DNA of 64,000 nucleotides from Planosporangium mesophilum (GTDB taxonomy: Bacteria > Actinomycetota > Actinomycetes > Mycobacteriales > Micromonosporaceae). The position numbers were made by a program, and so were the translations under genes. Positions 42,774 through 55,849 of the stretch are shown piece by piece (the first letter of the stretch is position 1; every line of letters begins with the position of its first letter). The stretch covers positions 1-64,000 of the forward strand of contig NZ_BOON01000030.1 of assembly GCF_016863255.1 (NCBI RefSeq). The letters are read 5' to 3'. The notes beneath the pieces are model-generated. The model worked only from the letters and a program-made list of their open reading frames with translations, ran no database searches and was not told where the DNA came from.

Positions 42774-42956
42774 GTGTCACTCGACCCGGCGCTGCTGGAG
42801 ATCCTGCGCTGCCCCGATGAGCACCACGCGGCCCTCGACTACGACGCCACGGCTTCGACGCTGACCTGCACCGAGTGCGCCCGCGTCTACGAGGTCCGCG
42901 ACGGCATCCCGGTCCTGCTGCTCGACGAGGCCCGTCAGGGCGGCGAGAAGTCCTGA
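42774..42956 (+). CDS. Trm112-family small zinc-binding protein
   Basis: 60 aa, GTG start with AAGGAGA upstream. LLEILRCPDEHHAAL at the N terminus and LTCTECARVYEVRDGIPVLL are the Trm112/YcaR pattern; cysteines C13, C32 and C35 remain, one of the usual four being replaced (possibly by His 17). Trm112 proteins activate methyltransferases in other organisms; the bacterial partner is unknown. Its stop overlaps the start of the SIS-domain gene as TGATG, so the two are translationally coupled. Confidence 0.9.
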   Translation: MSLDPALLEILRCPDEHHAALDYDATASTLTCTECARVYEVRDGIPVLLLDEARQGGEKS

Positions 42957-44173
42957 TGGCCGGTCCGTTCGAGGGCGAGGCCGGCGTCCGAGGCCACCGG
43001 CACCTGGATCTCGACCTGCTCGACGACGCCGAGGCGCTGGCGACCGCCGACCCCGGCGGGATGCTGCGCGCCACGGCGTCCTCCGGAGCACAGGTGCGCG
43101 AGTCCGCCGCCCTGGCGGCCGAGGCCAACCTCGGCTCGATCGCCGACGAGGGCCGGCCCAGGGCCGTGGTCGTCGCGGGCGTGGGTACCGCCGCGCGTAC
43201 CGGCGAGATCCTCGCCACGGTCGCCGGTGCCCGCTGCCCGGTCCCGGTACTCGCGCACCGCAGCGCCGGCATCCCGGGCTGGGTCGGCGCCGGTGACGTG
43301 GTCATCGCGGTATCGGCGTCGGGCCGCTCGCCCGAGGCGCTGGCCGCCGCCGAGGCGGCCTCCCGGCGCGGCGCCCGGCTGGTCGCGATCGGCGCTCCCG
43401 ACTCCGAGCTGCAGTCCATGGCAGAGCGCGCCCGCGCGCCGTTCATCCCGGTGCCGCGGCGTGCCCCGGCCCGGGCCAGCCTGTGGGCGCTCACCGTGCC
43501 GGTGCTGCTGGCCGCCCGTACCCTCGGGTTGGTCAAGGTCAACGAGGCCGACCTGGCGGAGACCGCGACCCGGCTCGACATGGACGCCGACCGGTGCCGG
43601 CCCGCCCTGGAGTCGTTCGTCAACCCGGCCAAGGCGCTCGCCCTCGACCTCGCCAACTCGATCCCGGTGATCTGGGGCTCGTCGTCGCTGGCGACGCTCG
43701 CAGCCCGCCGCTTCGCCGACACCCTCAGCTCGAACGCGCGCTACCCGGCGGTGGCGGGCGCGCTGGGCGAGGCCGGGCGCGGGCGCGTCGGCCTGCTCGA
43801 CGGGGTCTACGGCGGCCTGACCGAGGCCGGCCGCGACATCTTCGCCGACCCGGGTGAGAGCGACGAGGACGTGACCCGGCTGCGGCTGGTGCTGCTGCGC
43901 GACGGCGGCCTCTCCGACGACACCGACGACCAGGGCGAGCCGCTCGCCGTCGAGGAGCGCCGCGCCGACGCGGTGCAGGCTCTGGCCGAGCGTCGCGGGG
44001 TACGCGTGAGCGTGGTGACCGCCGAGGGCGCGTCGCCGCTGGAGCGACTGGCGTCGCTCGTCGCGGTCCCCGACTTCGCCTCGATGTACCTCGGTCTGGC
44101 CCACGGCCTGGACCCGATGGCCGTGCCGGCCGTCTCGGAGATGAAGGAGCTGTCGCGGCATGAGCGAGCGTAG
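42956..44173 (+). CDS. SIS-domain protein beside manB (Rv3256c-type)
   Basis: 405 aa. N-terminal sugar-isomerase domain: VVVAGVGTAARTGEIL, then GWVGAGDVVIAVSASGRSPE, a typical phosphosugar-binding SIS loop, followed by a second, more divergent SIS-like half (SIPVIWGSSSLATLAARRFA). Related to bifunctional phosphoglucose/phosphomannose isomerases, and to the protein between manB and manA in mycobacteria. Whether it isomerises, epimerises or only binds a sugar phosphate is unknown. The last codons (GAG CGA GCG TAG) are part of the 82-bp junction element. Confidence 0.88.
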   Translation: MAGPFEGEAGVRGHRHLDLDLLDDAEALATADPGGMLRATASSGAQVRESAALAAEANLGSIADEGRPRAVVVAGVGTAARTGEILATVAGARCPVPVLAHRSAGIPGWVGAGDVVIAVSASGRSPEALAAAEAASRRGARLVAIGAPDSELQSMAERARAPFIPVPRRAPARASLWALTVPVLLAARTLGLVKVNEADLAETATRLDMDADRCRPALESFVNPAKALALDLANSIPVIWGSSSLATLAARRFADTLSSNARYPAVAGALGEAGRGRVGLLDGVYGGLTEAGRDIFADPGESDEDVTRLRLVLLRDGGLSDDTDDQGEPLAVEERRADAVQALAERRGVRVSVVTAEGASPLERLASLVAVPDFASMYLGLAHGLDPMAVPAVSEMKELSRHERA

Positions 44174-44241
44174 CGAGCGAATCAGTAACTCAGTGCTTTG
44201 GCGAGCGCCGTCGCCGAGCGCCAGCGAGGTGACGGCATGAG
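44160..44241 (+). repeat. 82-bp gene-junction element, copy A
   Basis: Begins ATGAGCGAGCG and ends GTGACGGCATGAG. The 5' part contains the stop of the SIS gene (TAG 44171-44173). The 3' part supplies a ribosome-binding site (GAGGTG) and the ATG (44237) of the cation-efflux gene. CGGCATGAG occurs at both borders like a short target duplication. Copy B lies at 54831-54912, is also 82 bp, and by hand alignment matches at 61 positions, most strongly at the two ends. Confidence 0.8.
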
Positions 44242-45193
44242 TGCCGGCGGTGGTAACAAGGCGGTGGTCGCGGCGCTCGCGGCCAACCTCGGCATCGCGG
44301 TGACGAAGTTCGTCGCCTTCGCGCTGACCCTGTCGTCGTCGATGCTGGCGGAGGGGATCCACTCGCTCGTCGACTCCGGCAACCAGGTGCTGCTGCTGAT
44401 CGGCGGCAAGCGGGCGAAACGCCACGCGACGCCCAAGCATCCGTTCGGCTTCGGGCGGGAGCGCTACATCTATGCGTTCGTCGTCTCGATCATGCTCTTC
44501 TTCGTGGGTGGTCTGTTCGCCCTCTACGAGGCGTACCACAAGATCTCCCACCCCGAGCCGATCCTCAAATGGCAGTGGGTCCCGATCGTGGTCCTGGTGA
44601 TCGGCATCGTGCTGGAGTCGTTGTCGTTCCGGACCGCGATCCACGAGACCAACCAGATCCGCGGCGACGCGAGCTGGCCGGAGTTCATCCGCCGTTCCCG
44701 GGTACCGGAGCTGCCGGTGATCCTGCTGGAGGACTTCGCGGCGCTGATCGGCCTGGTGCTCGCGCTGTTCGGCGTCGGCCTGACGATCCTGACCGGCAAC
44801 GGGATCTGGGACGGCGTCGGTACCGCGGCGATCGGCCTGCTGCTGGTGGCGGTCGCGTTCGTCCTCGCGGTGGAGATGAAGAGCCTGCTGCTCGGCGAGT
44901 CGGCCACGGCCGACACGGTCGCGAAGATCGAGCGGGCGATCCTGGAAGGCGACGAGGCCGAGCGGATCATCCACATGCGTACCGTTCACGTCGGCCCGGA
45001 GGACCTGCTGGTGGCGGCGAAGATCGCGGTCCGCCACGACGAGACCGCCGGTGCGGTCGCCAAGGGCATCGACGCTATCGAGCGGCGCATCCGCTCCGCC
45101 GTACCGATCGCGAAGATGATCTACCTTGAGCCCGACATCTACCGGAAGCCGGGGACCAGCGTGGAGGCCGAGTCGGCGCTGACGGAGAGCTGA
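44237..45193 (+). CDS. Cation diffusion facilitator transporter (SLC30A9-like)
   Basis: 318 aa. About six membrane helices and a C-terminal cytoplasmic domain (HMRTVHVGPEDLLVAAKIAV). Metal site: HSLVDSGNQ in helix 2 and EDFAALIG in helix 5, the Glu-Asp variant seen in SLC30A9-type members rather than the His-Asp of classical zinc exporters, so metal specificity is open. HATPKHPFGFGRERY is the usual loop. The ATG and its ribosome-binding site belong to junction element copy A. The gene sits between SIS and manA genes that are neighbours in mycobacteria, so it was probably added to the operon. Confidence 0.93.
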   Translation: MSAGGGNKAVVAALAANLGIAVTKFVAFALTLSSSMLAEGIHSLVDSGNQVLLLIGGKRAKRHATPKHPFGFGRERYIYAFVVSIMLFFVGGLFALYEAYHKISHPEPILKWQWVPIVVLVIGIVLESLSFRTAIHETNQIRGDASWPEFIRRSRVPELPVILLEDFAALIGLVLALFGVGLTILTGNGIWDGVGTAAIGLLLVAVAFVLAVEMKSLLLGESATADTVAKIERAILEGDEAERIIHMRTVHVGPEDLLVAAKIAVRHDETAGAVAKGIDAIERRIRSAVPIAKMIYLEPDIYRKPGTSVEAESALTES

Positions 45194-45196
45194 TCC

Positions 45197-46348
45197 GTGG
45201 AGCCGCTCGACAACCCGGTCCGCGGGTACGCCTGGGGGTCGCGAACCGTTCTCGCGGCCCTGCAGGGGCGGCCCGCGACCGGGCGGCCCGAGGCCGAGCT
45301 GTGGATGGGTGCGCACCCGGGCAGCCCGTCGGCGGCGGGCGGGGTGCTGCTGACCGAGGTGATCGCGGGCGACCCGGCCGGCGTGCTCGGCGCCGGTACT
45401 GTCGCCCGCTTCGGGGAGCGGCTGCCGTTCCTGCTGAAGGTGCTGGCCGCCGCCGAGCCGCTGTCGTTGCAGGCCCACCCCACCAGCGGGCAGGCGGCCG
45501 AGGGGTTCGCCGCGGAGGAGGCGGCCGGCAAGCCGCGCGACGCGCCGGACCGCAACTACCGGGACCCGTACCACAAGCCTGAGCTGCTGGTCGCGGTCGA
45601 GCCGTTCGAGGCGCTGTGCGGGTTCCGCGACCCGGCGGTGACGGCGACCCTGCTCGCGGGCCTCGACGTCGCCGAGCTCGCGCCCACCGTCGCCGCGCTG
45701 CGCGGCGCGGATCCGGGCGTGGCTCTGCGCGAGGCGGTCACCGGCCTGATGGAGCTGGCCGAGGCCGAGCGCTCCGCGTTGGTCAAGGGCGTCGTCGCGG
45801 CGGCGCGCGGCCGGTCCGGCTACGAGCTGGCCACGGCGCTGGGGCAGCGGTACCGGGACGACCTCGGCGTGGTGGTCGCGCTGCTGCTCAACCACGTCAC
45901 ACTGCAACCGGGCGAGGCGGTCTGGATGCCGGCGGGCAACCTGCACGCGTACCTGCGCGGTACCGGGGTCGAGATCATGGCCGCCAGCGACAACGTGCTG
46001 CGGGGCGGGCTCACGCCGAAGCACGTGGACGTGCCGGAGCTGCTGCGGGTACTGCGCTTCGAGGTCCTCGCCGATCCGGTCGTACGCCCGCGCGAGGTGG
46101 CGCCGGGGCTGGTGACCTGGCCGGCGCCGGTCGACGACTTCGCGCTGTACCGGGCCCTGCCGGACGGTTCCGCGATCACCCTGCCCGGCGACGGCCCGCG
46201 CATCGTGTTCTGCCTGCGCGGAGAGGTTCGGGTCGACGACGGCGCGGGGGAGGTGGTCCTCGCCGGCGGGCAGGCCGCCTTCGGGAGGGCCGGCCGTGCC
46301 GCCACGGTCGCCGGCTCGGGTGAGGTCTACCAGGCGACGATCGCCTGA
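45197..46348 (+). CDS. manA: Mannose-6-phosphate isomerase, class I
   Basis: 383 aa, zinc-dependent interconversion of fructose-6-phosphate and mannose-6-phosphate. Marks: NPVRGYAWGSRTVLA at the start, PEAELWMGAHPGSPS, zinc ligands in SLQAHPTS and YHKPELLVAVEPFEALCGFR, and the NLHAYLRGTGVEIMAASDNV loop with the catalytic Arg downstream. GTG start, three bases after the cation-efflux stop, with GGAGAG upstream. It provides the first step toward GDP-mannose with manB and manC. Confidence 0.95.
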   Translation: MEPLDNPVRGYAWGSRTVLAALQGRPATGRPEAELWMGAHPGSPSAAGGVLLTEVIAGDPAGVLGAGTVARFGERLPFLLKVLAAAEPLSLQAHPTSGQAAEGFAAEEAAGKPRDAPDRNYRDPYHKPELLVAVEPFEALCGFRDPAVTATLLAGLDVAELAPTVAALRGADPGVALREAVTGLMELAEAERSALVKGVVAAARGRSGYELATALGQRYRDDLGVVVALLLNHVTLQPGEAVWMPAGNLHAYLRGTGVEIMAASDNVLRGGLTPKHVDVPELLRVLRFEVLADPVVRPREVAPGLVTWPAPVDDFALYRALPDGSAITLPGDGPRIVFCLRGEVRVDDGAGEVVLAGGQAAFGRAGRAATVAGSGEVYQATIA

Positions 46349-46370
46349 CCAGCCCGTACGGGCGCTGGTC
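46347..46370 (+). terminator. Hairpin over the manA stop codon
   Basis: GACCAGC (46347-46353) pairs with GCTGGTC (46364-46370) around a CCGTACGG centre, starting inside the manA TGA. No T-run. Possible end of the manB-manA operon, leaving ahcY to its own promoter. Confidence 0.45.
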
Positions 46371-46407
46371 TGCACCCGACTTGCAACCTGGAATGTCCCC
46401 ATTCGCC

Positions 46408-46435
46408 TTGACGGTAAGACTGCAGCCTGTAACTT
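46408..46435 (+). promoter_or_regulatory. Promoter of the ahcY leader
   Basis: TTGACG (46408-46413) and TAACTT (46430-46435) at 16-base spacing, with TG directly before the -10. The start of transcription would be near 46441, at the 5' edge of the structured leader. The local AT-rich patch TAACTTAATAA stands out in this GC-rich DNA. Confidence 0.55.
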
Positions 46436-46440
46436 AATAA

Positions 46441-46545
46441 CCACGCATTGTCACTCCTCTGGGAGTGCGAGCTGTGCGTGGGGGAACCAAACCGGGGGGA
46501 GACGCGGGGCGGTGGTGTCGGACACCACCGCCCCGCGCGTTTTCT
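46441..46545 (+). ncRNA. Structured ahcY leader or small RNA ending in an intrinsic terminator
   Basis: Predicted by hand: CCACGCA (46441-46447) pairs with TGCGTGG (46475-46481), enclosing CACTCC/GGAGTG (46452-46457 with 46462-46467). A single-stranded purine-rich stretch GGGGAACCAAACCGGGGGG follows, then a 15-bp terminator stem and TTTTCT. The whole fits about 105 nt between the promoter and the terminator, 58 bases before ahcY. It could be an attenuator or riboswitch for ahcY, or an independent sRNA. It does not match the SAH-riboswitch consensus I know. No coding frame of interest lies in it. Confidence 0.5.
46503..46545 (+). terminator. Strong intrinsic terminator upstream of ahcY
   Basis: CGCGGGGCGGTGGTG (46503-46517) pairs perfectly with CACCACCGCCCCGCG (46523-46537), five-base loop, then CGTTTTCTGTT. 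It is one of the few hairpins in the window with a true T-run, and the T-run is only on the plus strand. It lies in front of, not behind, a gene, which suggests regulated read-through into ahcY or the end of a small RNA. Confidence 0.8.
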
Positions 46546-46603
46546 GTTGCGCGTACGCTGGATTGTTGCCGCCCGCTTACGCATTGGCAGATCTGGAGAC
46601 TTC

Positions 46604-48100
46604 ATGACGAGCACAATTCAGCCGCGGGCCAACGCGGCCGCAGCCGGCCGTCCGCAGACCGTGGCTGACGGTGATTTCAAGGTTGCCGACCTGTCCCTCG
46701 CGGCGTTCGGCCGCAAGGAGATTCAGCTGGCCGAGCACGAGATGCCCGGCCTGATGGCGCTGCGCCGCGAGTACGGCGACGCCCAGCCGCTGCGCGGAGC
46801 GCGGATCACCGGGTCGCTGCACATGACGATCCAGACCGCGGTCCTGATCGAGACGCTGGTCGCGCTGGGCGCCCAGGTCCGGTGGGCGTCGTGCAACATC
46901 TTCTCCACCCAGGACCACGCCGCCGCGGCGATCGCGGTCGGTCCGAACGGCACGCCGGACAACCCGCAGGGCGTACCGGTGTACGCCTGGAAGGGCGAGA
47001 CGCTGCCCGAGTACTGGTGGTGCACCGAGCAGGTGCTGCTGTGGCCGGACGGCGGCGGCCCGAACATGATCCTCGACGACGGCGGGGACGCCACCCTGCT
47101 GGTCCACAAGGGTGCGGAGTTCGAGGGCGCGGGCGCGGTGCCGGCGGTGTCCGAGCACGACAGCGAGGAGTACGGCGTCATCCTGGAGACGCTGCGCCGC
47201 TCCCTCGCCGAGGACAACCAGCGGTGGACGCGGGTGGCGGCCGGGATCAAGGGCGTCACCGAGGAGACCACCACCGGCGTGCACCGGCTGTACGAGATGG
47301 CCCGCGCCGGCACGCTGCTGTTCCCGGCGATCAACGTCAACGACTCGGTGACCAAGTCGAAGTTCGACAACAAGTACGGCTGCCGGCACTCGCTCATCGA
47401 CGGCATCAACCGGGCCACCGACGTGCTCATCGGCGGCAAGGTCGCGCTGGTGTGCGGCTACGGCGACGTCGGCAAGGGCTGCGCGGAGTCGCTGCGCGGC
47501 CAGGGCGCCCGCGTGATCGTCACCGAGGTCGACCCGATCTGCGCGCTGCAGGCGGCGATGGACGGCTACCAGGTGACCACGATCGAGGACGTCGTCGGCA
47601 TGGTCGACATCTTCGTGACCACCACCGGCAACAAGGACATCATCACGGCCGCCCACATGGCCCGGATGAAGCACCAGGCCATCGTGGGAAACATCGGCCA
47701 CTTCGACAACGAGATCGACATGGCCGGCCTGGCGAAGACGCCGGGCATCGTGAAGAACGAGGTCAAGCCGCAGGTCCACGAGTGGGTGTTCCCGGACGGG
47801 CACTCGATCATCGTGCTGTCGGAGGGCCGGCTGCTGAACCTGGGCAACGCCACCGGGCACCCCAGCTTCGTCATGAGCAACTCGTTCACCAACCAGGTGA
47901 TGGCGCAGATCGAGCTGTACGCCAAGACCGACCAGTACCCGGTCGGGGTCTACACCCTCCCCAAGCACCTGGACGAGAAGGTCGCGCGGCTGCACCTGGA
48001 CGCCCTCGGCGTCAAGCTCACCACGCTGACCAAGGACCAGGCCGACTACATCGGCGTCCCGGTCGAGGGCCCGTACAAGTCGGAGCACTACCGGTACTGA
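46604..48100 (+). CDS. ahcY: S-adenosylhomocysteinase
   Basis: 498 aa from the ATG at 46604, preceded by GGAGA; the longer open frame upstream covers the leader and is rejected. Reversible hydrolysis of S-adenosylhomocysteine to adenosine and homocysteine with tightly bound NAD+, cytoplasmic. Marks: [51 protein letters not shown], the NAD loop [12 protein letters not shown] from G285 and the C-terminal KSEHYRY. The ~40-residue insert ([14 protein letters not shown] region) is the long form used by many actinobacteria. It removes the inhibitor left by methyltransferases. In M. tuberculosis sahH is also near manA. Confidence 0.97.
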
Positions 48101-48111
48101 TATATCTCCCG

Positions 48112-48150
48112 AAGATGCCGGCCACGGTCACCGTGGCCGGCATCTTTGTT
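48112..48150 (+). terminator. Intrinsic terminator after ahcY
   Basis: AAGATGCCGGCCACGG (48112-48127), loop TCA, and the exact complement (48131-48146), then TGTTTGTTCTGT. A 16-bp stem with a T-rich tail, 11 bases after the ahcY stop; a textbook rho-independent terminator. Confidence 0.9.
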
Positions 48151-48162
48151 TGTTCTGTCACC

Positions 48163-48221
48163 TTGACTTCCGACACCGGTCGCGCCGTAAGGTATCCCTA
48201 GCCTAAGTAAGGTCTACCTAA
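48163..48221 (+). promoter_or_regulatory. efe promoter with two overlapping IdeR/DtxR-like iron boxes
   Basis: A TTGACT (48163-48168) may be the -35. Box 1 at 48188-48206 reads TAAGGTATCCCTAGCCTAA and matches 14 of 19 positions of the DtxR consensus TTAGGTTAGCCTAACCTAA. Box 2 at 48203-48221 (CTAAGTAAGGTCTACCTAA) matches about 12. The boxes share four bases and cover the expected -10 region. Repression of efeUOB under iron sufficiency is inferred from this and from the iron-uptake genes that follow. Confidence 0.7.
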
Positions 48222-48251
48222 CTGGAACGTATCCAGTGTCAGGAGCGTGCC

Positions 48252-49100
48252 GTGTTGAACGCCCTTCTCGGCAACTTCCTCATCGGACTGCGTGAGGGCC
48301 TCGAAGCGACGCTCGTCGTCACGATTCTCGTCGCCTTCCTGGTGAAATCCGACCGCAAGGAGCGACTGCCCCAGGTGTGGGCGGGGGTCGGTGCCGCGGT
48401 GGCGCTGTCGGTCGGCTTCGGCGCCCTGCTGACGTTCGTGGCGCAGGATCTGCTGCCCTCGAGCAAGCGGGAGCTCTTCGACGCCGTGGTCTCCGTCGTC
48501 GCCGTCGTCTTCGTCACCTGGATGATCTTCTGGATGCGGCGGACCTCCCGGAAGCTCTCCGGCGAGCTGCGCACGAAGCTGTCCGACGCGATCAACGTCG
48601 GCGGGTTCGCCGTGGTCGGCATGGCGTTCCTCGCCGTGGCCCGGGAAGGGCTCGAGACCGCGACGCTGTTCTACACCGCCGCGCAGGGCGCCACCACGTC
48701 GGCCGGCCCGCTGGCCGGCATCACGCTGGGACTGGTCGCGTCCATCGCGCTCGGCTGGGCGCTGTACGCCAGCGCGGTGCGGATCAACCTCGCCACGTTC
48801 TTCAAGTGGACCGGTCTGCTGCTGGTCCTCGTCGCGGCCGGCATCCTCAAGTACGCCGTCCACGACTTCCACGAGGCCGGTGTGCTGCCCGGCGGCAACG
48901 TCCACGCCTTCGACTTCTCCAACGTCATCGACCCGGCCGCGTGGTACTCGGCCCTGGTGGGCGGCATGTTCAACCTCACGCCCACGATGAGCGTGTTCGA
49001 GCTGACCGCCTGGCTCGCGTACGCCGTGCCCGTGCTGTTCCTGTTCCTGCGCCCGGCGCGCCCGGTGACGCGGGTACCCGTGACGAGCGCCGCCGCCTGA
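48252..49100 (+). CDS. efeU: Iron permease EfeU (FTR1 family)
   Basis: 282 aa, seven membrane segments. Two REGLE iron-binding motifs: R14-E18 in LREGLEATLVV and R131-E135 in AREGLETATLF, as required for ferric-iron passage in the FTR1/EfeU family. GTG start with AGGAG upstream. First gene of efeU-efeO-efeB, with 42 bp to efeO. The operon imports iron, with EfeB oxidising ferrous iron and EfeO binding iron at the outer face of the membrane. Confidence 0.95.
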   Translation: MLNALLGNFLIGLREGLEATLVVTILVAFLVKSDRKERLPQVWAGVGAAVALSVGFGALLTFVAQDLLPSSKRELFDAVVSVVAVVFVTWMIFWMRRTSRKLSGELRTKLSDAINVGGFAVVGMAFLAVAREGLETATLFYTAAQGATTSAGPLAGITLGLVASIALGWALYASAVRINLATFFKWTGLLLVLVAAGILKYAVHDFHEAGVLPGGNVHAFDFSNVIDPAAWYSALVGGMFNLTPTMSVFELTAWLAYAVPVLFLFLRPARPVTRVPVTSAAA

Positions 49101-49142
49101 GCCAGCCTCTTCCCCCGATCCTCGCCGCCAGGAGTGCCCTTC

Positions 49143-50261
49143 ATGCGTAGCCACCGCCTGCCCGCCTGCGTCACGCTCGGCGCCCTCGCCCTCACCGGCC
49201 TCGCGGCGTGCGGGCAGAAGACGGACAAGTCGCAGAAGATCGCCGTCAGCGCCTCGGACAGCGCCTGCGAGGTCGCCCGGACCGAGCTGCCCGCCGGTGC
49301 CCACACCTTCTCGGTGACCAACAAGGGCAGCAAGGTCACCGAGTTCTACGTGTACGCCAAGGACGGCAGCATCAAGGGCGAGGTGGAGAACATCGGCCCG
49401 GGTACCACCCGCGACGTCCACGTCGAGCTGGCGGCCGGCGAGTACGAGAGCGCCTGCAAGCCCGGTATGAAGGGCGACGGGATCCGGGGCAAGCTGACCG
49501 TCACCGGTCAGGCGGCGGCGCTCGCGTCCGACCCCAAGCTGGCCGCGGCCGTGGCGACGTACAAGGCGTACGTGTCGACCGAGGCCGACGCCCTGCTGGC
49601 GAAGACCACCGAGTTCGCGGCCGCCGTGAAGGCGGGCGACACCGCGAAGGCCAAGGAGCTGTACCCGGTCGCACGTACCCACTGGGAGCGCATCGAGCCG
49701 GTGGCGGAGTCGTTCGGCGACCTGGACCCGGCGATCGACGCGCGGGAGAACGACGTCGAGGCCGGCCAGGAGTGGACCGGCTTCCACAAGATCGAAAAGG
49801 ACCTGTGGGTCACCGGCGACGTCAGCGGTGACGCCCGCGTGGCGGACAAGCTGGTCACCGACGTCACGGAGATCGTGACCCGTTCCAAGTCGGTGGACCT
49901 GTCCCCGGTGCAGTTGGCAACCGGCTCGAAGGAGCTGCTCGACGAGGTCGCGACCGGGAAGATCACCGGCGAGGAGGACCGGTACTCCCACACCGACCTC
50001 TGGGACTTCGCCGCCAACGTCGAGGGCTCCAAGGCCGCGGTCGACGCGCTGCGTGACGCCCTGACCGCCCGCGACCCGAAGCTGGCCGACGAGCTGACCG
50101 CCAAGTTCGCGGCGGTCGACGCCGCGCTGGGCAAGCACAAGGCCGGTACCGGCTGGAAGTCCTACACCGAGCTGTCCAAGGCCGACATCAAGGAGTTGTC
50201 GGACGTCATCAACGGTCTGGCCGAGCCGATCAGCAAGGTCGCGGCGGTGATCGCCAAGTAG
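49143..50261 (+). CDS. efeO: EfeO iron-binding lipoprotein (cupredoxin plus M75 domains)
   Basis: 372 aa from the ATG at 49143, nine bases after CAGGAG; the GTG at 49134 would sit on the ribosome-binding site. Signal peptide with lipobox L20-A-A-C23. Residues ~35-125 are the cupredoxin-like domain (TELPAGAHTFSVTNKGSKVT, GMKGDGIRGKLTV). Residues ~130-372 are the M75 imelysin-like domain, with HWERIEPVAESFGDLDPAID and the HxxE motif H215-K-I-E218. Both iron-site parts of the full-length EfeO type are there. Membrane-anchored outside the cell. Confidence 0.95.
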   Translation: MRSHRLPACVTLGALALTGLAACGQKTDKSQKIAVSASDSACEVARTELPAGAHTFSVTNKGSKVTEFYVYAKDGSIKGEVENIGPGTTRDVHVELAAGEYESACKPGMKGDGIRGKLTVTGQAAALASDPKLAAAVATYKAYVSTEADALLAKTTEFAAAVKAGDTAKAKELYPVARTHWERIEPVAESFGDLDPAIDARENDVEAGQEWTGFHKIEKDLWVTGDVSGDARVADKLVTDVTEIVTRSKSVDLSPVQLATGSKELLDEVATGKITGEEDRYSHTDLWDFAANVEGSKAAVDALRDALTARDPKLADELTAKFAAVDAALGKHKAGTGWKSYTELSKADIKELSDVINGLAEPISKVAAVIAK

Positions 50262-50270
50262 TCGTGTCTT

Positions 50271-50306
50271 GGACGGTTGTGCGACCTACGGGTTGAACAA
50301 CCGTCC
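50271..50306. repeat. 10-bp inverted repeat between efeO and efeB
   Basis: GGACGGTTGT (50271-50280) and ACAACCGTCC (50297-50306), 16-base loop, in the 72-bp gap within the efe operon. It is followed by GTCCACGATCGCGGAG, which overlaps the right arm and is identical to bases in the purE terminator. It may attenuate efeB or stabilise the efeUO message; no T-run. Confidence 0.55.
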
Positions 50307-50333
50307 ACGATCGCGGAGTTCGGGAGGGTGGCG

Positions 50334-51608
50334 ATGGCGGGCAGGTTCTCGCGACGGCGGATGCTCACGGTCGGCGGCGCGGGCGTGGCCGGCGCGGTGG
50401 CGGCCGGCGGGGCCGGTGCGTGGGCGCGCGGCCTGATGGCGGAGGAGCAGCACGGCTCGGAGGCGGGCGGTGCCGTCGCGTTCCTCGGTGAGCACCAGGC
50501 CGGTATCACCACCCCGGCGCAGGACCGGCTGCACTTCGTGGCGTTCGACGTGACCACGGACAAGCGGGCCGACCTGGTCGACCTGCTGCGGGAGTGGACC
50601 CTGGCGGCCGCCCGGCTGACCGCCGGGCACGACGCCGGGCCGGTCGGCGCGGTGAACGGGTCGCCGGAGGCGCCGCCCGACGACACCGGCGAGGCGCTGG
50701 GCCTCCCGCCGTCCGGGCTGACGCTGACGGTCGGTTTCGGGCCCACGCTGTTCCGGGACGCCGGCGGCCGCGACCGGTTCGGGATCGCCGACCGCAAACC
50801 GGCGGCCCTCGCCGACCTGCCGCACTTTCGCGGCGACGCGCTGGACCCGGCCACCGGTGGCGGCGACATCTGCGTACAGGCCTGCGCGCACGACCCGCAG
50901 GTGGCCGTGCACGCCATCCGCAACCTGGCCCGTATCGGCTTCGGCGCGGTGAGCATGCGCTGGTCCCAGCTGGGCTTCGGGCGTACCTCCTCCACGTCGC
51001 GCGCGCAGGCCACGCCCCGCAACCTGTTCGGGTTCAAAGACGGTACGGCCAACCTCAAGGCGGAGGACACCGCCGCGCTCCGCCAGCACCTGTGGGTACA
51101 GGCGGGGGACGGGCCGGCGTGGATGACCGGCGGCACGTACCTGGTCACCCGGAAGATCCGGATGATGATCGAGACGTGGGACCGCACCTCGCTGGCCGAG
51201 CAGGAGGCCATCGTCGGGCGGACGAAGGGTACCGGCGCGCCGCTCGGAAAGCGCGGCGAGTTCGACGAACTCAACCTCGCGGCGACCGGCGCCGACGGTA
51301 AGCAGGTGATCCCCGCCGACTCACACGTACGGCTGGCCCACCCGGACACCAACGGCGGCGCGCGGCTGCTGCGGCGCGGGTACAACTTCGTCGACGGCTC
51401 GGACGGGCTGGGCCGGCTCGGCGCCGGCCTGTTCTTCATGGCCTACCAGCGGGATCCGCGGCGGCAGTTCGTGCCGATCCAGACCTCGCTGGCCCGGAAC
51501 GACGCCATGAACGAGTACCTGCGGCACGTCTCCAGCGGGCTGTACGCCTGCCCGCCCGGGGTCCGTACGGCCGACGACTTCTGGGGCCGCGCGCTGTTCT
51601 CGTCGTGA
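50334..51608 (+). CDS. efeB: EfeB, Tat-exported Dyp-type heme peroxidase
   Basis: 424 aa from the ATG at 50334 (GGGAGGG upstream). Twin-arginine signal: FSRRRML at residues 5-11, then an Ala/Gly-rich hydrophobic core. Dyp signature GFKDGTANL with the distal Asp, the proximal heme His in DSHVRLAHP, and the Arg in GARLLRRGYNF. It would work extracytoplasmically with EfeO and EfeU, oxidising Fe(II) or acting as deferrochelatase-peroxidase. Complete length. It ends the efe operon; no termination hairpin was seen directly after it. Confidence 0.95.
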   Translation: MAGRFSRRRMLTVGGAGVAGAVAAGGAGAWARGLMAEEQHGSEAGGAVAFLGEHQAGITTPAQDRLHFVAFDVTTDKRADLVDLLREWTLAAARLTAGHDAGPVGAVNGSPEAPPDDTGEALGLPPSGLTLTVGFGPTLFRDAGGRDRFGIADRKPAALADLPHFRGDALDPATGGGDICVQACAHDPQVAVHAIRNLARIGFGAVSMRWSQLGFGRTSSTSRAQATPRNLFGFKDGTANLKAEDTAALRQHLWVQAGDGPAWMTGGTYLVTRKIRMMIETWDRTSLAEQEAIVGRTKGTGAPLGKRGEFDELNLAATGADGKQVIPADSHVRLAHPDTNGGARLLRRGYNFVDGSDGLGRLGAGLFFMAYQRDPRRQFVPIQTSLARNDAMNEYLRHVSSGLYACPPGVRTADDFWGRALFSS

Positions 51609-52026
51609 CCGGCGCGACCCTAGATACGGCGGTGTGACAACCGTGGTCTCGGCTCGGCCGACTCTCTTCGAACCCTTGCTCCGGGTCCGGAAATCGGGTT
51701 GCACGGCCGGGCGTCCCGGGCCGTCCGGTCCGAGCCGACGAGGCCGAGCGGGCCAGCATACCCGACATGTCGGGCGTGGATCGGGTTATCGGCGAGGTGA
51801 TGTGAACTTTCAGTCATACAGGATCGGACGTACGGATGACGGTCGTTACCCTGGCGTGGTGTCCGGATAACGGGACAGTCACGAATTCGGGCGCCCTCTT
51901 TGCAGGCGACCCCTGGCGACGTTTGCTTTATGCACTACAACGCAGCCCCTGCCTGCCCGGGTCCGTGCACCTTGCCATGGTCTCGGCGTGCCGGCGCGTG
52001 GGCTGCGGTAGCTGACTGGAGGGAAA
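51609..52026. other. 418-bp gap upstream of oppA
   Basis: No gene is supported. It contains a perfect 14-bp palindrome CCCGACATGTCGGG at 51761-51774 and a looser pair CGTTACC (51844-51850) / GGATAACG (51864-51871); either could be an operator for the opp operon. The stretch from about 51780 is less GC-rich than coding DNA around it. No convincing -35/-10 pair was chosen. GGAGGG lies just before the oppA ATG. Confidence 0.45.
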
Positions 52027-53745
52027 ATGCGCACAGCTAAGAGGTTGGCGGGCGCTGTCGCTGCCGCCGGCGTCTCACTGGCGGTGGTTGCGGCGTGTGG
52101 TGGCGGCGGCAGCTCGGATAGCGGAAAGACCGTCTCGACGAGCTTTGCCGACTGCGCCACCAAGCCGAACGACTGCAACGGTGGGGCGACCAAGCAGGGT
52201 GGCACGCTCACGTACGCCGTCGAGAAGAAGATCACCGGTTGGAACCTCAACGACGCGGAGACAAACACCGCCGACTACGTGCCGGTGATGACCGGCATCA
52301 CGCCCCAGGCGTTCGTCGTTGAGCCGGACTTCTCCGTCCGACTCAACGACGACCTGCTGGATTCGGCCGAGCAGACGAGCACCAGCCCGCAGACGATCGT
52401 CTACAAGATCAAGAAGGAAGCGGTCTGGGACGACGGCACGCCGATCTCCGCCGACGACTTCACCTACGCCTTCCAGACCCGCAACAGCAAGGACTGCAAG
52501 GACTGCAGCCCCGCGTCGGCCTCTGGCTACAACATCATCAAGTCGGTCACCGGCTCGGACAACGGCAAGACCGTGACCGTGGTCTTCGACAGCCCGTTCC
52601 CGGACTGGAAGGCGTTGTTCGACAACCTGCAGCCGGCGCACATCGCCAAGCAGCACGGTGACCTGGCGACCTCGTTCAAGTGGTTCAACGAGACCGTGCC
52701 CACCTTCTCCGGTGGCCCGTACAAGATCTCGGACTACCAGAAGGACGTCTCGGTCACCGAGGTGCCGAACCCGAAGTGGTACGGCAAGACCAAGCCGAAG
52801 CTCGACAAGCTGGTCTTCCGTATCATCACCGACCAGTCGCAGGAGGTGCCGGCCCTCCAGAACAACGAGGTCCAGGTCATCTACCCGCAGCCGGACCAGG
52901 ACATGGTCAACCAGGTGAAGGCGCTGGCCCCGAACGTTCAGTACAGCCTGGGCACGGGCCTGACCTGGGAGCACTTCGACCTCAACCTGAAGAACAAGTT
53001 CCTGGCTGACAAGCCGCTGCGACAGGCGATCTTCACGGCGCTCAACCGCCAGGAGGTCATCGCCAAGACGATCGGCCAGTTCGTGCCGGGCGCCAAGCCG
53101 CTGAACAACCACAACTTCAAGCCGAGCCAGGACGGCTACAAGGACGTCGTCACCTCCACCGGTGCCGGCTCCGGCGACGTCGAGAAGGCCAAGAAGGTCC
53201 TCACCGACGCCGGTTACAAGGGCGTCGGCACGGCACTGGCCACCCCCGCCGGCGAGCCCATCTCGCTGCGCGTCACTTACACCGCCAGCAACCCGCTGCG
53301 GAAGGCGACCGCCGAGCTGTTCCAGAAGCAGATGCAGGCGATCGGTCTCAAGATCGACGTCACCCCCACCCAGACTCTCGGCCCGACACTGACCAAGGGC
53401 GACTACGACGTGATCCTGTTCGCGTGGATCGGTCAGCCGTTCGCCTTGCAGGGCGCGGAGCAGCTGTGGGGCAGCGCCAGCGACAGCAACTACGGCAAGT
53501 GGGTGAACCCCAAGAGCGACGACCTGCTGAAGCAGGCCACCGCGCAGGTCGACCCCAAGAAGGCCACTGACCTGCTCAACCAGGCCAACCAGGTCATGGC
53601 GGACGACTACTACGTGCTTCCGCTGTTCCAGAAGCCGACGTTCCTGGCCGCGTACTCGCAGTTCGCGAACATCCGCGACAACGCGACCACGAGCAGCCCT
53701 GGTTACAACAACCAGGAGTGGGGCCTGCGCGCCTCGGCCAAGTGA
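52027..53745 (+). CDS. oppA: Oligopeptide ABC transporter substrate-binding lipoprotein
   Basis: 572 aa, family 5 extracellular solute-binding protein. Signal peptide with lipobox V21-A-A-C24, then a Gly/Ser-rich spacer. Family marks: GGTLTYAVEKK, TIVYKIKKEAVWDDGTPISADDF, FSGGPYKISDYQKD and KPLRQAIFTALNRQEVI. It captures peptides or similar solutes for the permease encoded downstream. Codon use is less GC3-extreme in places than its neighbours, typical of a highly expressed gene. A 19-bp hairpin separates it from oppB. The exact ligand (peptide, nickel, glycan or antibiotic fragment) is not predictable. Confidence 0.93.
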   Translation: MRTAKRLAGAVAAAGVSLAVVAACGGGGSSDSGKTVSTSFADCATKPNDCNGGATKQGGTLTYAVEKKITGWNLNDAETNTADYVPVMTGITPQAFVVEPDFSVRLNDDLLDSAEQTSTSPQTIVYKIKKEAVWDDGTPISADDFTYAFQTRNSKDCKDCSPASASGYNIIKSVTGSDNGKTVTVVFDSPFPDWKALFDNLQPAHIAKQHGDLATSFKWFNETVPTFSGGPYKISDYQKDVSVTEVPNPKWYGKTKPKLDKLVFRIITDQSQEVPALQNNEVQVIYPQPDQDMVNQVKALAPNVQYSLGTGLTWEHFDLNLKNKFLADKPLRQAIFTALNRQEVIAKTIGQFVPGAKPLNNHNFKPSQDGYKDVVTSTGAGSGDVEKAKKVLTDAGYKGVGTALATPAGEPISLRVTYTASNPLRKATAELFQKQMQAIGLKIDVTPTQTLGPTLTKGDYDVILFAWIGQPFALQGAEQLWGSASDSNYGKWVNPKSDDLLKQATAQVDPKKATDLLNQANQVMADDYYVLPLFQKPTFLAAYSQFANIRDNATTSSPGYNNQEWGLRASAK

Positions 53746-53785
53746 GGTAGCCGCCAGGCAACGTAAACGCCATCTGCACATTGGG

Positions 53786-53827
53786 TAGTGTCGGATCCCG
53801 GACGTTCGCGTCCGGGATCCGACACTA
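53786..53827. terminator. 19-bp UUCG hairpin between oppA and oppB
   Basis: TAGTGTCGGATCCCGGACG (53786-53804), TTCG, and the exact complement (53809-53827): 19 perfect pairs closed by a very stable tetraloop. No T-run, and the next gene follows 24 bases later on the same strand. Best read as a partial terminator or 3' stabiliser that keeps the binding-protein transcript in excess over the permease transcripts. Confidence 0.8.
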
Positions 53828-53851
53828 AGTGGGCACAGCTGGGAGGTACGC

Positions 53852-54838
53852 GTGCTCGCGTACGTCATACGACGCATTTTTGTTTCGATCCCGATCCTGA
53901 TCGGATCGACGATCCTGGTCTTCATCATGGTCAAGTTCTCCGGTGATCCGCTGGAGCCCTTGAAGATGCGCAACCCGCCGGCTCCGCGACAGACGATCCT
54001 GAACGAGGAGCACCGGCTCGGTCTGGACCAGCCGATTCACGTGCAGTACCTGAACTGGTTGAAGAACCTGGTCCTGCACGGCGACTTCGGCCCGTCGGTC
54101 CACTCCAACACCAACATCGGCCACGAACTGGGCGGCCGGCTCGTCGTATCGCTGCGTCTGGTCCTCATCTCGGTGTTGATCGCCCTCATCTTCGCGGTGA
54201 TCACCGGTGTGGTGAGTGCCGTGAAGCAGTACTCGGCGACCGACTACACCTTCACGTTCACCGGCTTCCTGTTCCTGGCCATGCCCACGTTCTGGTTCGC
54301 GATCCTGCTCAAGTCGGCGGCCATCTCGTACAACCAGGCAATCGGTACCCAGACCTTCTTCACCATCGGCGACAAGTCGCCGTTCCTGACCGACGACTCC
54401 GCCTGGGGGCACGTCAAGGACATCGCCGGCCACATGATCCTGCCGACCATCGTGCTGGGCCTCGTCAGCTACGCGGCGTGGAGCCGGTTCCAGCGCGCGT
54501 CGATGCTCGAGGTGCTCAACAGCGACTACGTCCGGCTGGCCCGGGCCAAGGGGCTGCGGCCCCGGCGGGTCCTGGTACGGCACGCGCTGCGTACCGCGCT
54601 GATCCCGCTGACGACCGTGACGGCGCTCGACATCGCCGCGCTGCTCGGCAGCACGATCATCACCGAACGGGTCTTCCAGTGGCACGGTCTCGGTGAGTTC
54701 TTCCTCGACTCGGTCGGGGACCACGACGCGAACGCGATGCTGGGCTGGCTGCTCATCTCCGCGTTGATCGTCATTCTCTTCAACCTCGTCGCCGACCTCT
54801 TGTACGGCGTGCTCGACCCGAGGATCCGCTATGAGTGA
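53852..54838 (+). CDS. oppB: Oligopeptide ABC transporter permease OppB
   Basis: 328 aa, GTG start with GGGAGG upstream. N-terminal IRRIFVSIPILIGSTILVF membrane segment, the conserved GLDQPIHVQYLNWLKNLV loop, and about six helices in all. The EAA-type coupling loop is YVRLARAKGLRPRRVLVRHA. Forms the membrane channel with OppC. The stop TGA overlaps the start of junction element copy B. Confidence 0.94.
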   Translation: MLAYVIRRIFVSIPILIGSTILVFIMVKFSGDPLEPLKMRNPPAPRQTILNEEHRLGLDQPIHVQYLNWLKNLVLHGDFGPSVHSNTNIGHELGGRLVVSLRLVLISVLIALIFAVITGVVSAVKQYSATDYTFTFTGFLFLAMPTFWFAILLKSAAISYNQAIGTQTFFTIGDKSPFLTDDSAWGHVKDIAGHMILPTIVLGLVSYAAWSRFQRASMLEVLNSDYVRLARAKGLRPRRVLVRHALRTALIPLTTVTALDIAALLGSTIITERVFQWHGLGEFFLDSVGDHDANAMLGWLLISALIVILFNLVADLLYGVLDPRIRYE

Positions 54839-54912
54839 GCGAAGCGAACGAATCATGGGCTCAGCGTGTGTGCTCATGCGGTCAGCGAGCCCCAGCGAGG
54901 TGGCGGCATGAG
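54831..54912 (+). repeat. 82-bp gene-junction element, copy B
   Basis: Begins ATGAGTGAGCGAAGCGA over the oppB stop and ends GGTGGCGGCATGAG with the ATG of oppC at 54908. ATGAGTGAG is repeated exactly at both borders (54831-54839 and 54908-54916). It carries the oppC ribosome-binding site GAGGTG. Same length and same polarity relative to the genes as copy A at 44160-44241. Confidence 0.8.
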
Positions 54913-55849
54913 TGAGATGCGTGCCAGTTCGGTGACGACGTCGGGAACCCCCCAGCCGACGTCTGTGACGGGCGGGTCCGACCGCGAGTTCAACGTCAAG
55001 GAGCGCAGCCAGCTTCAGCAGGCGCTGCGGCGCTTCCGGCGCCATCGGCTCGCCGTCGCCAGCCTGGTGCTGTTGATTTTCATCGTGCTGCTGGCGTTCG
55101 TCGGTCCGCTGGTGTGGAAGTACCAGTACACCGACATCACGCCGGACAACTCGCAGCCGCCGTCGCTGGCGCACCCCTTCGGCACCGACAGCCTCGGCCA
55201 TGACGGGTTCGCACAGGTGCTGCGGGGGCTCCAGCAGTCGATCAAAGTGGCGCTCTGCATCGCCCTCGTCGCCACCACCCTCGGCGTGGTGTGGGGCGGC
55301 ATCTCCGGGTACTACCGGGGCCTGGCCGACTCCGTGCTCATGCGTCTTGCCGATCTGATCCTGACGATCCCCGCGATCGCGCTGGCCGCCGCGCTGGGCA
55401 GCACCTCCGGCGGCGCCTGGTGGATGATCGCCCTGATCCTGGGCGGCCTGAGCGCGCCGCTGGTGGCGCGGGCCGTCCGCGGCGTCGTGCTCTCCCTGCG
55501 CGAGCAGGAGTTCATCGAGGCGGCCCGGGCGCTGGGCGCCTCGGACAGCCGGATCATCCTGCGCCACCTCGTGCCGAACGCGCTCGCGGTGGTCATCGTC
55601 TACGCGACGCTGCTGGTCGCCGCCGGCATCCTCGCCGAGACGGCGTTGTCCTACGTCGGCTTCGGGGTGCAGGCGCCCGATACCTCGCTCGGTCTTCTCA
55701 TCACCGCGGCCCAGTCGGCGGTACAGACCCGGCCGTGGCTGTTCTACTTCCCCGGCTTGTTCATCATCCTGATCGCGCTCACGGTCAACTTCATCGGTGA
55801 CGGCCTGCGTGACGCGCTCGACCCCCGACAGACGAGGCAACGCCGATGA
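54908..55849 (+). CDS. oppC: Oligopeptide ABC transporter permease OppC
   Basis: 313 aa from the ATG at 54908 in junction element B. A polar N terminus of about 45 residues precedes FRRHRLAVASLVLLIFIVLL. Then PFGTDSLGHDGFAQVLRGLQ (OppC/DppC signature), and the EAA loop EFIEAARALGASDSRIILRH. Six membrane segments. The last bases overlap the start of oppD as ATGA, giving translational coupling. Confidence 0.95.
   Translation: MSEMRASSVTTSGTPQPTSVTGGSDREFNVKERSQLQQALRRFRRHRLAVASLVLLIFIVLLAFVGPLVWKYQYTDITPDNSQPPSLAHPFGTDSLGHDGFAQVLRGLQQSIKVALCIALVATTLGVVWGGISGYYRGLADSVLMRLADLILTIPAIALAAALGSTSGGAWWMIALILGGLSAPLVARAVRGVVLSLREQEFIEAARALGASDSRIILRHLVPNALAVVIVYATLLVAAGILAETALSYVGFGVQAPDTSLGLLITAAQSAVQTRPWLFYFPGLFIILIALTVNFIGDGLRDALDPRQTRQRR

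What the first reader, a model, noticed from the sequence alone, without database searches (positions are those of the whole stretch)
44160..54912. Two 82-bp junction elements that bring their own ribosome-binding site and start codon
Copies at 44160-44241 and 54831-54912 lie in the same orientation at same-strand gene junctions of unrelated operons (SIS to cation efflux; oppB to oppC). Both are exactly 82 bp; by hand alignment 61 positions agree, with the first 25 and last 25 bases most alike. Each starts at an ATGAG overlapping the upstream stop and ends at the ATGAG start of the next gene, with GAGGTG as ribosome-binding site. The border repeats (CGGCATGAG in A, ATGAGTGAG in B) look as if a unit of about 77 bp inserted at a start codon and duplicated it. 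A dispersed element that targets gene starts and re-supplies translation signals would be unusual.
Basis: partly seen in the sequence, partly recalled or inferred. Interest (0 to 1): 0.7.

Follow-up and report, generated by a model that had tools for sequence, protein, structure and literature searches.

The report
Start-codon-inserting mini-gene repeats, MIRU-like
The two 82-base repeats belong to a scattered family of tiny genes that sit exactly at the start codons of other genes and probably hand translation on to them, much like the MIRU repeats known from mycobacteria, here in other actinobacteria and with hairpins that covary.

Summary
A (44160-44241) and B (54831-54912) agree at 61 of 82 positions. 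I picked 25 such units in this genome by eye, and all 25 mini-ORFs end with their TGA overlapping the RTGA start of the next ORF. Full-length units are 74, 77 or 80 bp (15 aligned), so the frame is kept (25-27 codons, MSERSERI...ERSEVAA*).

Both covary. Orthologous junctions in congeners are empty exactly at the start codon at 9 of 13 tested junctions and at B. Insertion at start codons is therefore supported.

The kind is not new: a 2025 review describes mycobacterial MIRUs as apparently mobile repeats that insert at start codons with an ORF coupled at -4 nt. This family shares a GAGCGNAGCGA core and the -4 layout with MIRU-type repeats, but not their full sequence. New are the hosts, the two-hairpin build, the covariation and the empty sites. 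The mover is unknown.

The parts
44160..44236 (+). Copy A, unit of 77 bp (without the following ATGAG)
44160..44240 (+). Mini-ORF of copy A, MSERSERISNSVLWRAPSPSASEVTA*, 26 codons; its TGA (44238-44240) overlaps the ATG of the next gene at 44237
44160..44182 (+). Hairpin 1 of copy A (spans the mini-ORF start codon; GNA loop, tandem G-A mismatches)
   Evidence: covariation on 90 pattern hits; not in the minimum-energy fold of this single copy
44207..44236 (+). Hairpin 2 of copy A, 9-bp stem, then GA-GC-GCCA-GC-GA; contains the Shine-Dalgarno-like GAGGTG (44226-44231); the start codon is outside the stem here
42875..44173 (+). Upstream SIS-like ORF; runs 14 nt into copy A and stops at the TAG made by its GCGTAGC core
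   Evidence: ORF start not resolved
44237..45193 (+). Downstream cation-efflux-like gene, starting at the ATG that ends copy A
   Evidence: name by eye
54831..54907 (+). Copy B, unit of 77 bp
   Evidence: empty site in G002
54831..54911 (+). Mini-ORF of copy B, MSERSERIMGSACVLMRSASPSEVAA*, 26 codons; TGA overlaps the next ATG at 54908
54831..54853 (+). Hairpin 1 of copy B (T6-A18 where copy A has C6-G18)
   Evidence: not in the minimum-energy fold of this copy
54872..54913 (+). Hairpin 2 of copy B; its outer stem pairs the downstream ATGAG start with CTCAT
53852..54838 (+). oppB-like gene upstream of copy B; its TGA lies in the ATGAGTGA at the 5' edge of the element
   Evidence: name by eye
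54908..55849 (+). oppC-like gene downstream of copy B
   Evidence: name by eye

Best explanation
A and B are copies of a dispersed insertion element of the MIRU kind with no transposase of its own. It enters at the RTGA of a gene start. The original upstream signals then drive the element's mini-ORF of 25-27 codons. The mini-ORF runs into a hairpin that holds a new Shine-Dalgarno and often the new start codon, and its stop TGA overlaps the gene's start by 4 nt. A ribosome that reads the mini-ORF opens the hairpin and passes to the gene by translational coupling, so the insertion is tolerated and the gene stays expressed. Shown here: dispersal, start-codon position, -4 layout, frame, hairpin covariation, presence/absence at orthologous junctions. 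Inferred: translation of the mini-ORF, the coupling, and insertion (not only precise loss) as the main direction. Unknown: the enzyme that moves it.
For: 25 of 25 mini-ORFs that I picked in the own genome end 4 nt over the next start, all in sense (one tandem pair at C5 shares its stop, so 24 separate stops). Of 187 distinct copies in the loci then held, 173 have the stop overlapping a start: 153 before an ORF of 60 codons or more or one running off the stretch, 20 before a shorter ORF, of which 15 are a further unit; 12 have no early stop and 2 do not overlap. Shine-Dalgarno-like string before the gene start in 142 of 173, before the mini-ORF in 103 of 173, in-gene control 84 of 865. Empty sites in congeners at 9 of 13 junctions; junction B empty in G002. 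Hairpin 1: bases 1 and 23 are A-T 51, G-C 23, A-C 13, G-T 3 of 90, Fisher p 2e-9. Hairpin 2, 86 copies: pair -10/+10 paired in 71 against a shuffled maximum of 49, -11/+11 66 against 56, -8/+8 69 against 57. A review gives the same model for MIRUs.
Against: Fold energies of A and B alone are no better than shuffles (z -0.32 and -1.06) and hairpin 1 is not in either minimum-energy fold. In hairpin 2 the pairs -7, -13, -16, -17, -18 and -19 do not exceed the best shuffle; -16 to -18 cannot, because the start codon does not vary. The shuffles ignore relatedness. No expression data were at hand. C51a is filled in all three congeners and C47 in two of three, C5 is unclear in all six genomes, and at A all three congeners carry a variant. 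No mover was found. MIRUs between senX3 and regX3 are reported to have promoter activity (PMC4213456, passages); a promoter role was not tested here.
Confidence: 0.82

Rival explanations
1. Regulatory leader rather than mobile element: the mini-ORFs are kept because they regulate each gene (attenuator, coupling switch or promoter), and copies spread rarely or by gene conversion.
For: Both hairpins covary and the frame is kept at 25 of 25 picked copies. Where the 3' core puts N at codon position 1 (offset 14), N is A in 21 of 22; at codon position 3 (offset 15) it is A 37, C 24, G 22, T 5, which hints at peptide constraint, though lineage could explain it.
Against: Downstream genes look unrelated by eye, congeners carry different variants at one junction (A, C74, C21), and many orthologous sites are empty.
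Confidence: 0.25
2. Purely selfish hairpin DNA (REP or IS200/IS605-derived) moved by an HUH transposase, with the translation layout only a by-product of which insertions survive.
For: Hairpins with GCGNAGC cores; at C74 and C15b the relatives' GTGA is kept 5' and ATGA is 3', as expected for insertion 3' of a short target without true duplication. Y1 transposases occur in some carriers: G003 (14 pattern hits), G024 (9), G002 (7).
Against: No Y1 transposase at E 1e-5 in G000 (15 pattern hits), G001 (17), G034 (7) or G033 (4); 10 of 61 genomes have one. The downstream ends of the three Y1 loci that could be read (L258, L259, L263) look unrelated by eye. No element-like match was antisense or away from a gene start among the 45 core hits of G000.
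Confidence: 0.15
3. Vertical descent of a conserved intergenic sequence at each junction, similar by constraint and not by dispersal.
For: C51a is filled in three of three congeners, C47 in two of three with one unclear.
Against: Empty sites at 9 of 13 junctions, tandem units with identical peptides, host genes that look unrelated.
Confidence: 0.03

Closest known systems
MIRU, mycobacterial interspersed repetitive units (Supply et al. 1997, seen only as a citation; described in one passage of the review PMC12548453)
   Same: Short dispersed repeats that appear mobile, insert at start codons and carry an ORF coupled at -4 nt; 77-bp and 53-bp units are reported side by side in PMC4213456 (passages). 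Shared core GAGCGNAGCGA, then GAGG, then RTGA; 26 of 32 MIRU-type copies read here have an ORF through the core ending 4 nt over the next start, by a permissive test.
   Different: Hosts are other families; the tail GAGCGNAGCGATGAGGAGG has 0 matches in G000-G003 with up to 1 mismatch; the 5' hairpin half was not seen in the MIRU-type copies printed; the peptide differs.
Rickettsia palindromic elements, as described in the MITE review PMC10969869 (passages)
   Same: Small palindromic mobile repeats that stay translatable.
   Different: Those are reported in frame inside genes; here a separate mini-ORF lies before the gene (12 of 187 copies had no early stop).
REP palindromes (PMC3733652: abstract start in a listing and a term search without hits)
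   Same: Dispersed hairpin repeats.
   Different: No Y1 transposase in G000; start-codon position and an ORF are not REP features as I recall them.
Termination-reinitiation coupling at overlapping stop and start codons (PMC6728339, abstract start and passages)
   Same: Overlapping stop and start codons, and Shine-Dalgarno motifs before the restart.
   Different: There the coupled pairs are ordinary genes, not a repeat.
Leader genes close to start codons in bacteria (PMC4833913, first of three parts read)
   Same: Short leader ORFs proposed to raise translation of the next gene by reinitiation, in Actinobacteria too.
   Different: Non-overlapping leaders with a peak at 10-11 bp distance; no repeat family is described in the part read.

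Membership tests
MIRU (mycobacterial interspersed repetitive units) | Short dispersed repeat inserted at start codons | tested here: met
   25 mini-ORFs at 24 junctions in G000; empty sites
MIRU (mycobacterial interspersed repetitive units) | Internal ORF coupled to the host gene with a 4-nt overlap | tested here: met
   Layout met in 25 of 25 picked copies and 173 of 187; the coupling itself is not testable here
MIRU (mycobacterial interspersed repetitive units) | Sequence similarity to mycobacterial MIRU | tested here: inconclusive
   Shared GAGCGNAGCGA core and GAGG; full MIRU-type tail absent from G000-G003.
MIRU (mycobacterial interspersed repetitive units) | Tandem units at some loci | tested here: met
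   Tandem units; 15 copies followed by another unit
MIRU (mycobacterial interspersed repetitive units) | Host is Mycobacterium | tested here: not met
   Listed hosts are Micromonospora, Nocardia, Microbispora and others (80 of 116 stretches listed); hence MIRU-like, not filed as MIRU
REP / RAYT or IS200/IS605 MITE | Y1 (HUH) transposase in the genome, with related ends | tested here: not met
   PF01797 absent in G000 and G001 at E 1e-5, present in G002 and G003; downstream ends of three Y1 loci differ by eye
Rickettsia palindromic element | In-frame insertion inside an ORF | tested here: not met
   Separate mini-ORF in 25 of 25 picked own copies
Known structured RNA (Rfam) | Match to a covariance model | tested here: not met
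   No match up to E 1 in 5 loci of G000

The most novel reading that the evidence does not exclude
An actinobacterium-wide superfamily, of which MIRU is one branch, whose 5' hairpin base-pairs with the target start codon itself (A1-T23 or G1-C23 plus tandem G-A pairs), so that the element chooses ATGA or GTGA starts by a built-in guide and then supplies a hairpin-gated start to the gene. Target choice by self-pairing at start codons would be a new targeting logic for a mobile element.
Probability: 0.25. Interest if true: 0.8.

Novelty: new variant of a known kind. Interest (0 to 1): 0.58.

Why it matters
It extends start-codon-inserting, translation-preserving repeats from mycobacteria to other actinobacterial families, gives them a covarying two-hairpin anatomy, and offers filled and empty orthologous sites in one genus. 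That makes two questions testable: how MIRU-type repeats move, and whether they are neutral passengers or set the expression of many operons. It also bears on annotation, since the mini-ORFs shift gene starts and sometimes seem to be fused to the N-terminus of the host protein.

Tried and rejected
Y1 transposase as the mover: absent at E 1e-5 from G000, G001, G033 and G034 but present in the carriers G002, G003 and G024, so presence does not track copies; the downstream ends of three Y1 loci look unrelated by eye (of five loci tried, the script picked the wrong ORF in two). Faithful target-site duplication: partly against it, C74 and C15b have GTG at the 5' edge, as in relatives, and ATG at the gene. 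Partly for it, over 173 copies the 5' and 3' start bases correlate (A,A 137; G,G 11; G,A 12; A,G 12; A,T 1; Fisher p 1e-5), and the two bases before each start are equal more often than I would expect when they are not GC (both CG 6, both TC 4, both CC 4); so the border question stays open. Phage, plasmid or viral carriage: no exact pattern match in viral contigs, no blastn match to one 85-base copy in plasmids or phages at E 1e-3. Rfam: nothing for five loci. Single-sequence folding as proof of structure: not significant for A and B, somewhat better for C24 (z -2.8 as DNA, -2.3 as RNA). Peptide-level selection from base N: suggestive only. Even spread over the phylum: no, 8 of 396 genomes, own included.

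Reading notes. The stability of d(GCGNAGC) minihairpins was recalled, and its citations were seen in passages of PMC6479982. Tandem G-A pairs in DNA are recalled only. That such repeats are not in print outside mycobacteria rests on the paper searches, in an open-access library only; one search listed 10 of 527 papers, none of the ten holding 'interspersed repetitive unit' or 'MIRU-like'.
Full report
Observation. In the window the core is found only there. Searches of the window's own genome (6.62 Mb, 103 contigs) with A and B find further full or partial copies on other contigs; I did not read the weak matches above about E 0.01 one by one. The core GAGCGNAGCGAG has 45 matches against 21 for the reversed control. 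I read their context (and earlier prints) and sorted them by eye: 30 lie in elements and 15 are stray matches. All 30 are in sense orientation at a gene start. Of the 15 stray ones, all lie in open frames of at least 600 bases on the same strand, which says little at this G+C content; C35:102314 may be a degenerate element at a gene start.

Anatomy. In 15 full copies aligned, the length with the trailing ATGAG is 79, 82 or 85, so the unit is 74, 77 or 80 bp and keeps one frame. Each copy is a mini-ORF, 25-27 codons in the main forms, and its TGA overlaps the ATG or GTG of the next ORF by 4 nt. I picked 25 mini-ORFs in the own genome by eye, short and degenerate forms included, and 25 of 25 end this way; the upstream unit of the tandem at C5 reads in frame into the next unit and shares its stop, and C51:55589 is followed by a second mini-ORF. 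At least one more degenerate copy (C34:116528) was not in the list. Over the loci then held, 187 distinct copies were collected by a start codon plus the 5' core with up to 2 mismatches: 173 have the stop overlapping a start, 153 of them before an ORF of at least 60 codons or one running off the stretch, and 20 before a shorter ORF, of which 15 are a further unit and 5 are not (one of these, L073, is a frameshifted copy); 12 have no early stop and look fused to the host protein or are the gene itself; 2 do not overlap. A Shine-Dalgarno-like string lies 4-14 bases before the gene start in 142 of 173, before the mini-ORF start in 103 of 173, and in 84 of 865 in-gene control windows.

Two hairpins. 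Bases 1-23 can fold on a GNA loop as ATGAGCGAGC-GNA-GCGAGCGAAT with tandem G-A mismatches. In 90 pattern hits from 18 genomes (45 distinct sequences), where the pattern left A or G at base 1 and C or T at base 23 open, the two are A-T 51, G-C 23, A-C 13 and G-T 3 (Fisher p 2e-9), and bases 6 and 18 are C-G 76, T-G 11, T-A 3, never C-A (related copies are not independent). The ATG/GTG start of the mini-ORF thus covaries with codon 8, which coding alone would not ask for. The 3' hairpin is a palindrome round a second GNA core; in many copies its outer stem pairs the downstream ATGAG with CTCAT. In my stem search the start codon is inside the stem in 99 of 173 copies, and 51% of copies exceed the 95th percentile of 360 shuffles. 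In 86 copies with one register, pairs -3, -5, -6, -8, -9, -10, -11, -12, -14 and -15 exceed each of 500 shuffles (-5 is mostly G-A, and -15 by one copy), while -2, -4, -7, -13, -16, -17, -18 and -19 do not; -16 to -18 cannot, as the start codon is constant. In some lineages the 3' core is read in another frame (AAKRGRA in place of ERSEVAA), so the nucleic acid seems conserved more than the peptide; against this, base N is nearly fixed where it would change an amino acid (21 of 22), which may be lineage. For A and B alone, predicted RNA energy is not better than shuffles and hairpin 1 is not in the best fold.

Empty sites. At junction B, G002 of the same genus reads GGATCCGTT-ATGAGTGAAATTCG with no element, while G001 and G003 carry shortened forms. 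At junction A all three congeners carry different variants, and G011 and G033 of other genera have none. Fourteen further junctions went into the query. From its 81 matches I carried on the 55 strongest; this left out C51b, which had only weaker partial matches, so 13 junctions were scored. Each orthologue was aligned to the G000 junction with and without the element and called by a score margin of 15. At least one congener is empty at C2, C6, C15a, C16b, C12, C1, C74, C21 and C15b, that is 9 of 13. C24 is filled in the one congener available and empty in G011. C51a is filled in all three congeners, C47 in two with one unclear, and C5 is unclear in all six genomes. For C2 in G001 and G002 the print shows a possible remnant, so G003 is its clean case. 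The insertion point is the start codon. At C74 and C15b the relatives that are empty start with GTGA, G000 has GTGA at the 5' edge, and its gene now starts with ATGA, so there the 5' RTGA looks target-derived and the 3' ATGA element-derived; over all copies the two start bases still correlate. Absence could also be precise loss; a tree would decide.

Spread. The 5' pattern with up to 1 mismatch is in 18 of 61 genomes, own included, and in all 4 genomes of the genus that were searched; the reversed control is zero throughout. In 396 genomes drawn over the phylum it is in 8, own included. By eye, lineages have their own 3' halves, as expected for repeated spread from local masters. Nothing was found in viral contigs, plasmids or phages or in Rfam for five loci.

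What is known. A 2025 review (PMC12548453, passages) says that MIRUs appear mobile, insert at start codons and place an ORF at -4 nt to the host gene. A recalled MIRU fragment with up to 3 mismatches matches in 34 of 60 genomes of one unnamed genus, with zero for the control. Of 32 such copies in the 30 loci fetched, 26 have an ORF through the core ending at -4 by a permissive test (any in-frame start upstream), and 6 do not. Their core is GAGCGNAGCGA followed by TGAGGAGG, and their peptide often ends DDAERSDEEERRx, close to the Catellatospora ends DERSEERA and DERSEEKA. With up to 1 mismatch the MIRU-type tail is in 2 of 41 genomes searched (G037 of another family and G043) and not in G000-G003. 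I therefore call the family MIRU-like: it works like MIRU, probably shares its origin, and is not filed as MIRU. MIRUs between senX3 and regX3 are also reported to drive expression as promoters (PMC4213456, passages); I did not test that here.

Mechanism. Best supported: insertion at RTGA, original signals used by the mini-ORF, a hairpin-held Shine-Dalgarno and often start for the gene, and coupling by a ribosome that reads through. Shown are position, layout, frame, covariation and empty sites; translation, coupling and the direction of change are inferred. The mover is unknown: Y1 transposases are absent from G000 and G001 and present in G002 and G003, and the three whose downstream ends could be read have other ends by eye.

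Noticed in passing
G000:C2 (L013, L237): The gene after this copy, by eye an NAD-dependent DNA ligase, itself starts MSERSED..., as if a partial second element were fused to its N-terminus.
   Followed up: partly
L121, L127, L145, L159 (Nocardia) and L150: In-frame ORFs of 351-354 and 599 codons begin with MSERSERI; the last looks like a succinate dehydrogenase flavoprotein by eye. The element may have become part of these proteins or mis-set their starts.
   Followed up: no
L213 (G000:C15:128375) and L329 (G003, junction C21): A second repeated string, GAGCGAAGCGAGCCCCGCAGTCGCGAACAGGA, shares the core but not the rest of the element.
   Followed up: no
window 44160-44241 and its orthologues L240, L241, L242: Junction A carries a different variant or tandem in each of three congeners, so some start sites seem to be reused.
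   Followed up: partly
window 48252-51608: Three consecutive + strand ORFs look like an iron permease, an EfeO-like lipoprotein and a Dyp-type peroxidase (efeUOB order), read by eye from translations.
   Followed up: no
window 42935-46444 and 53825-55840, minus strand: Long antisense open frames of 1169 and 671 codons run across both elements; probably an effect of high G+C.
   Followed up: no
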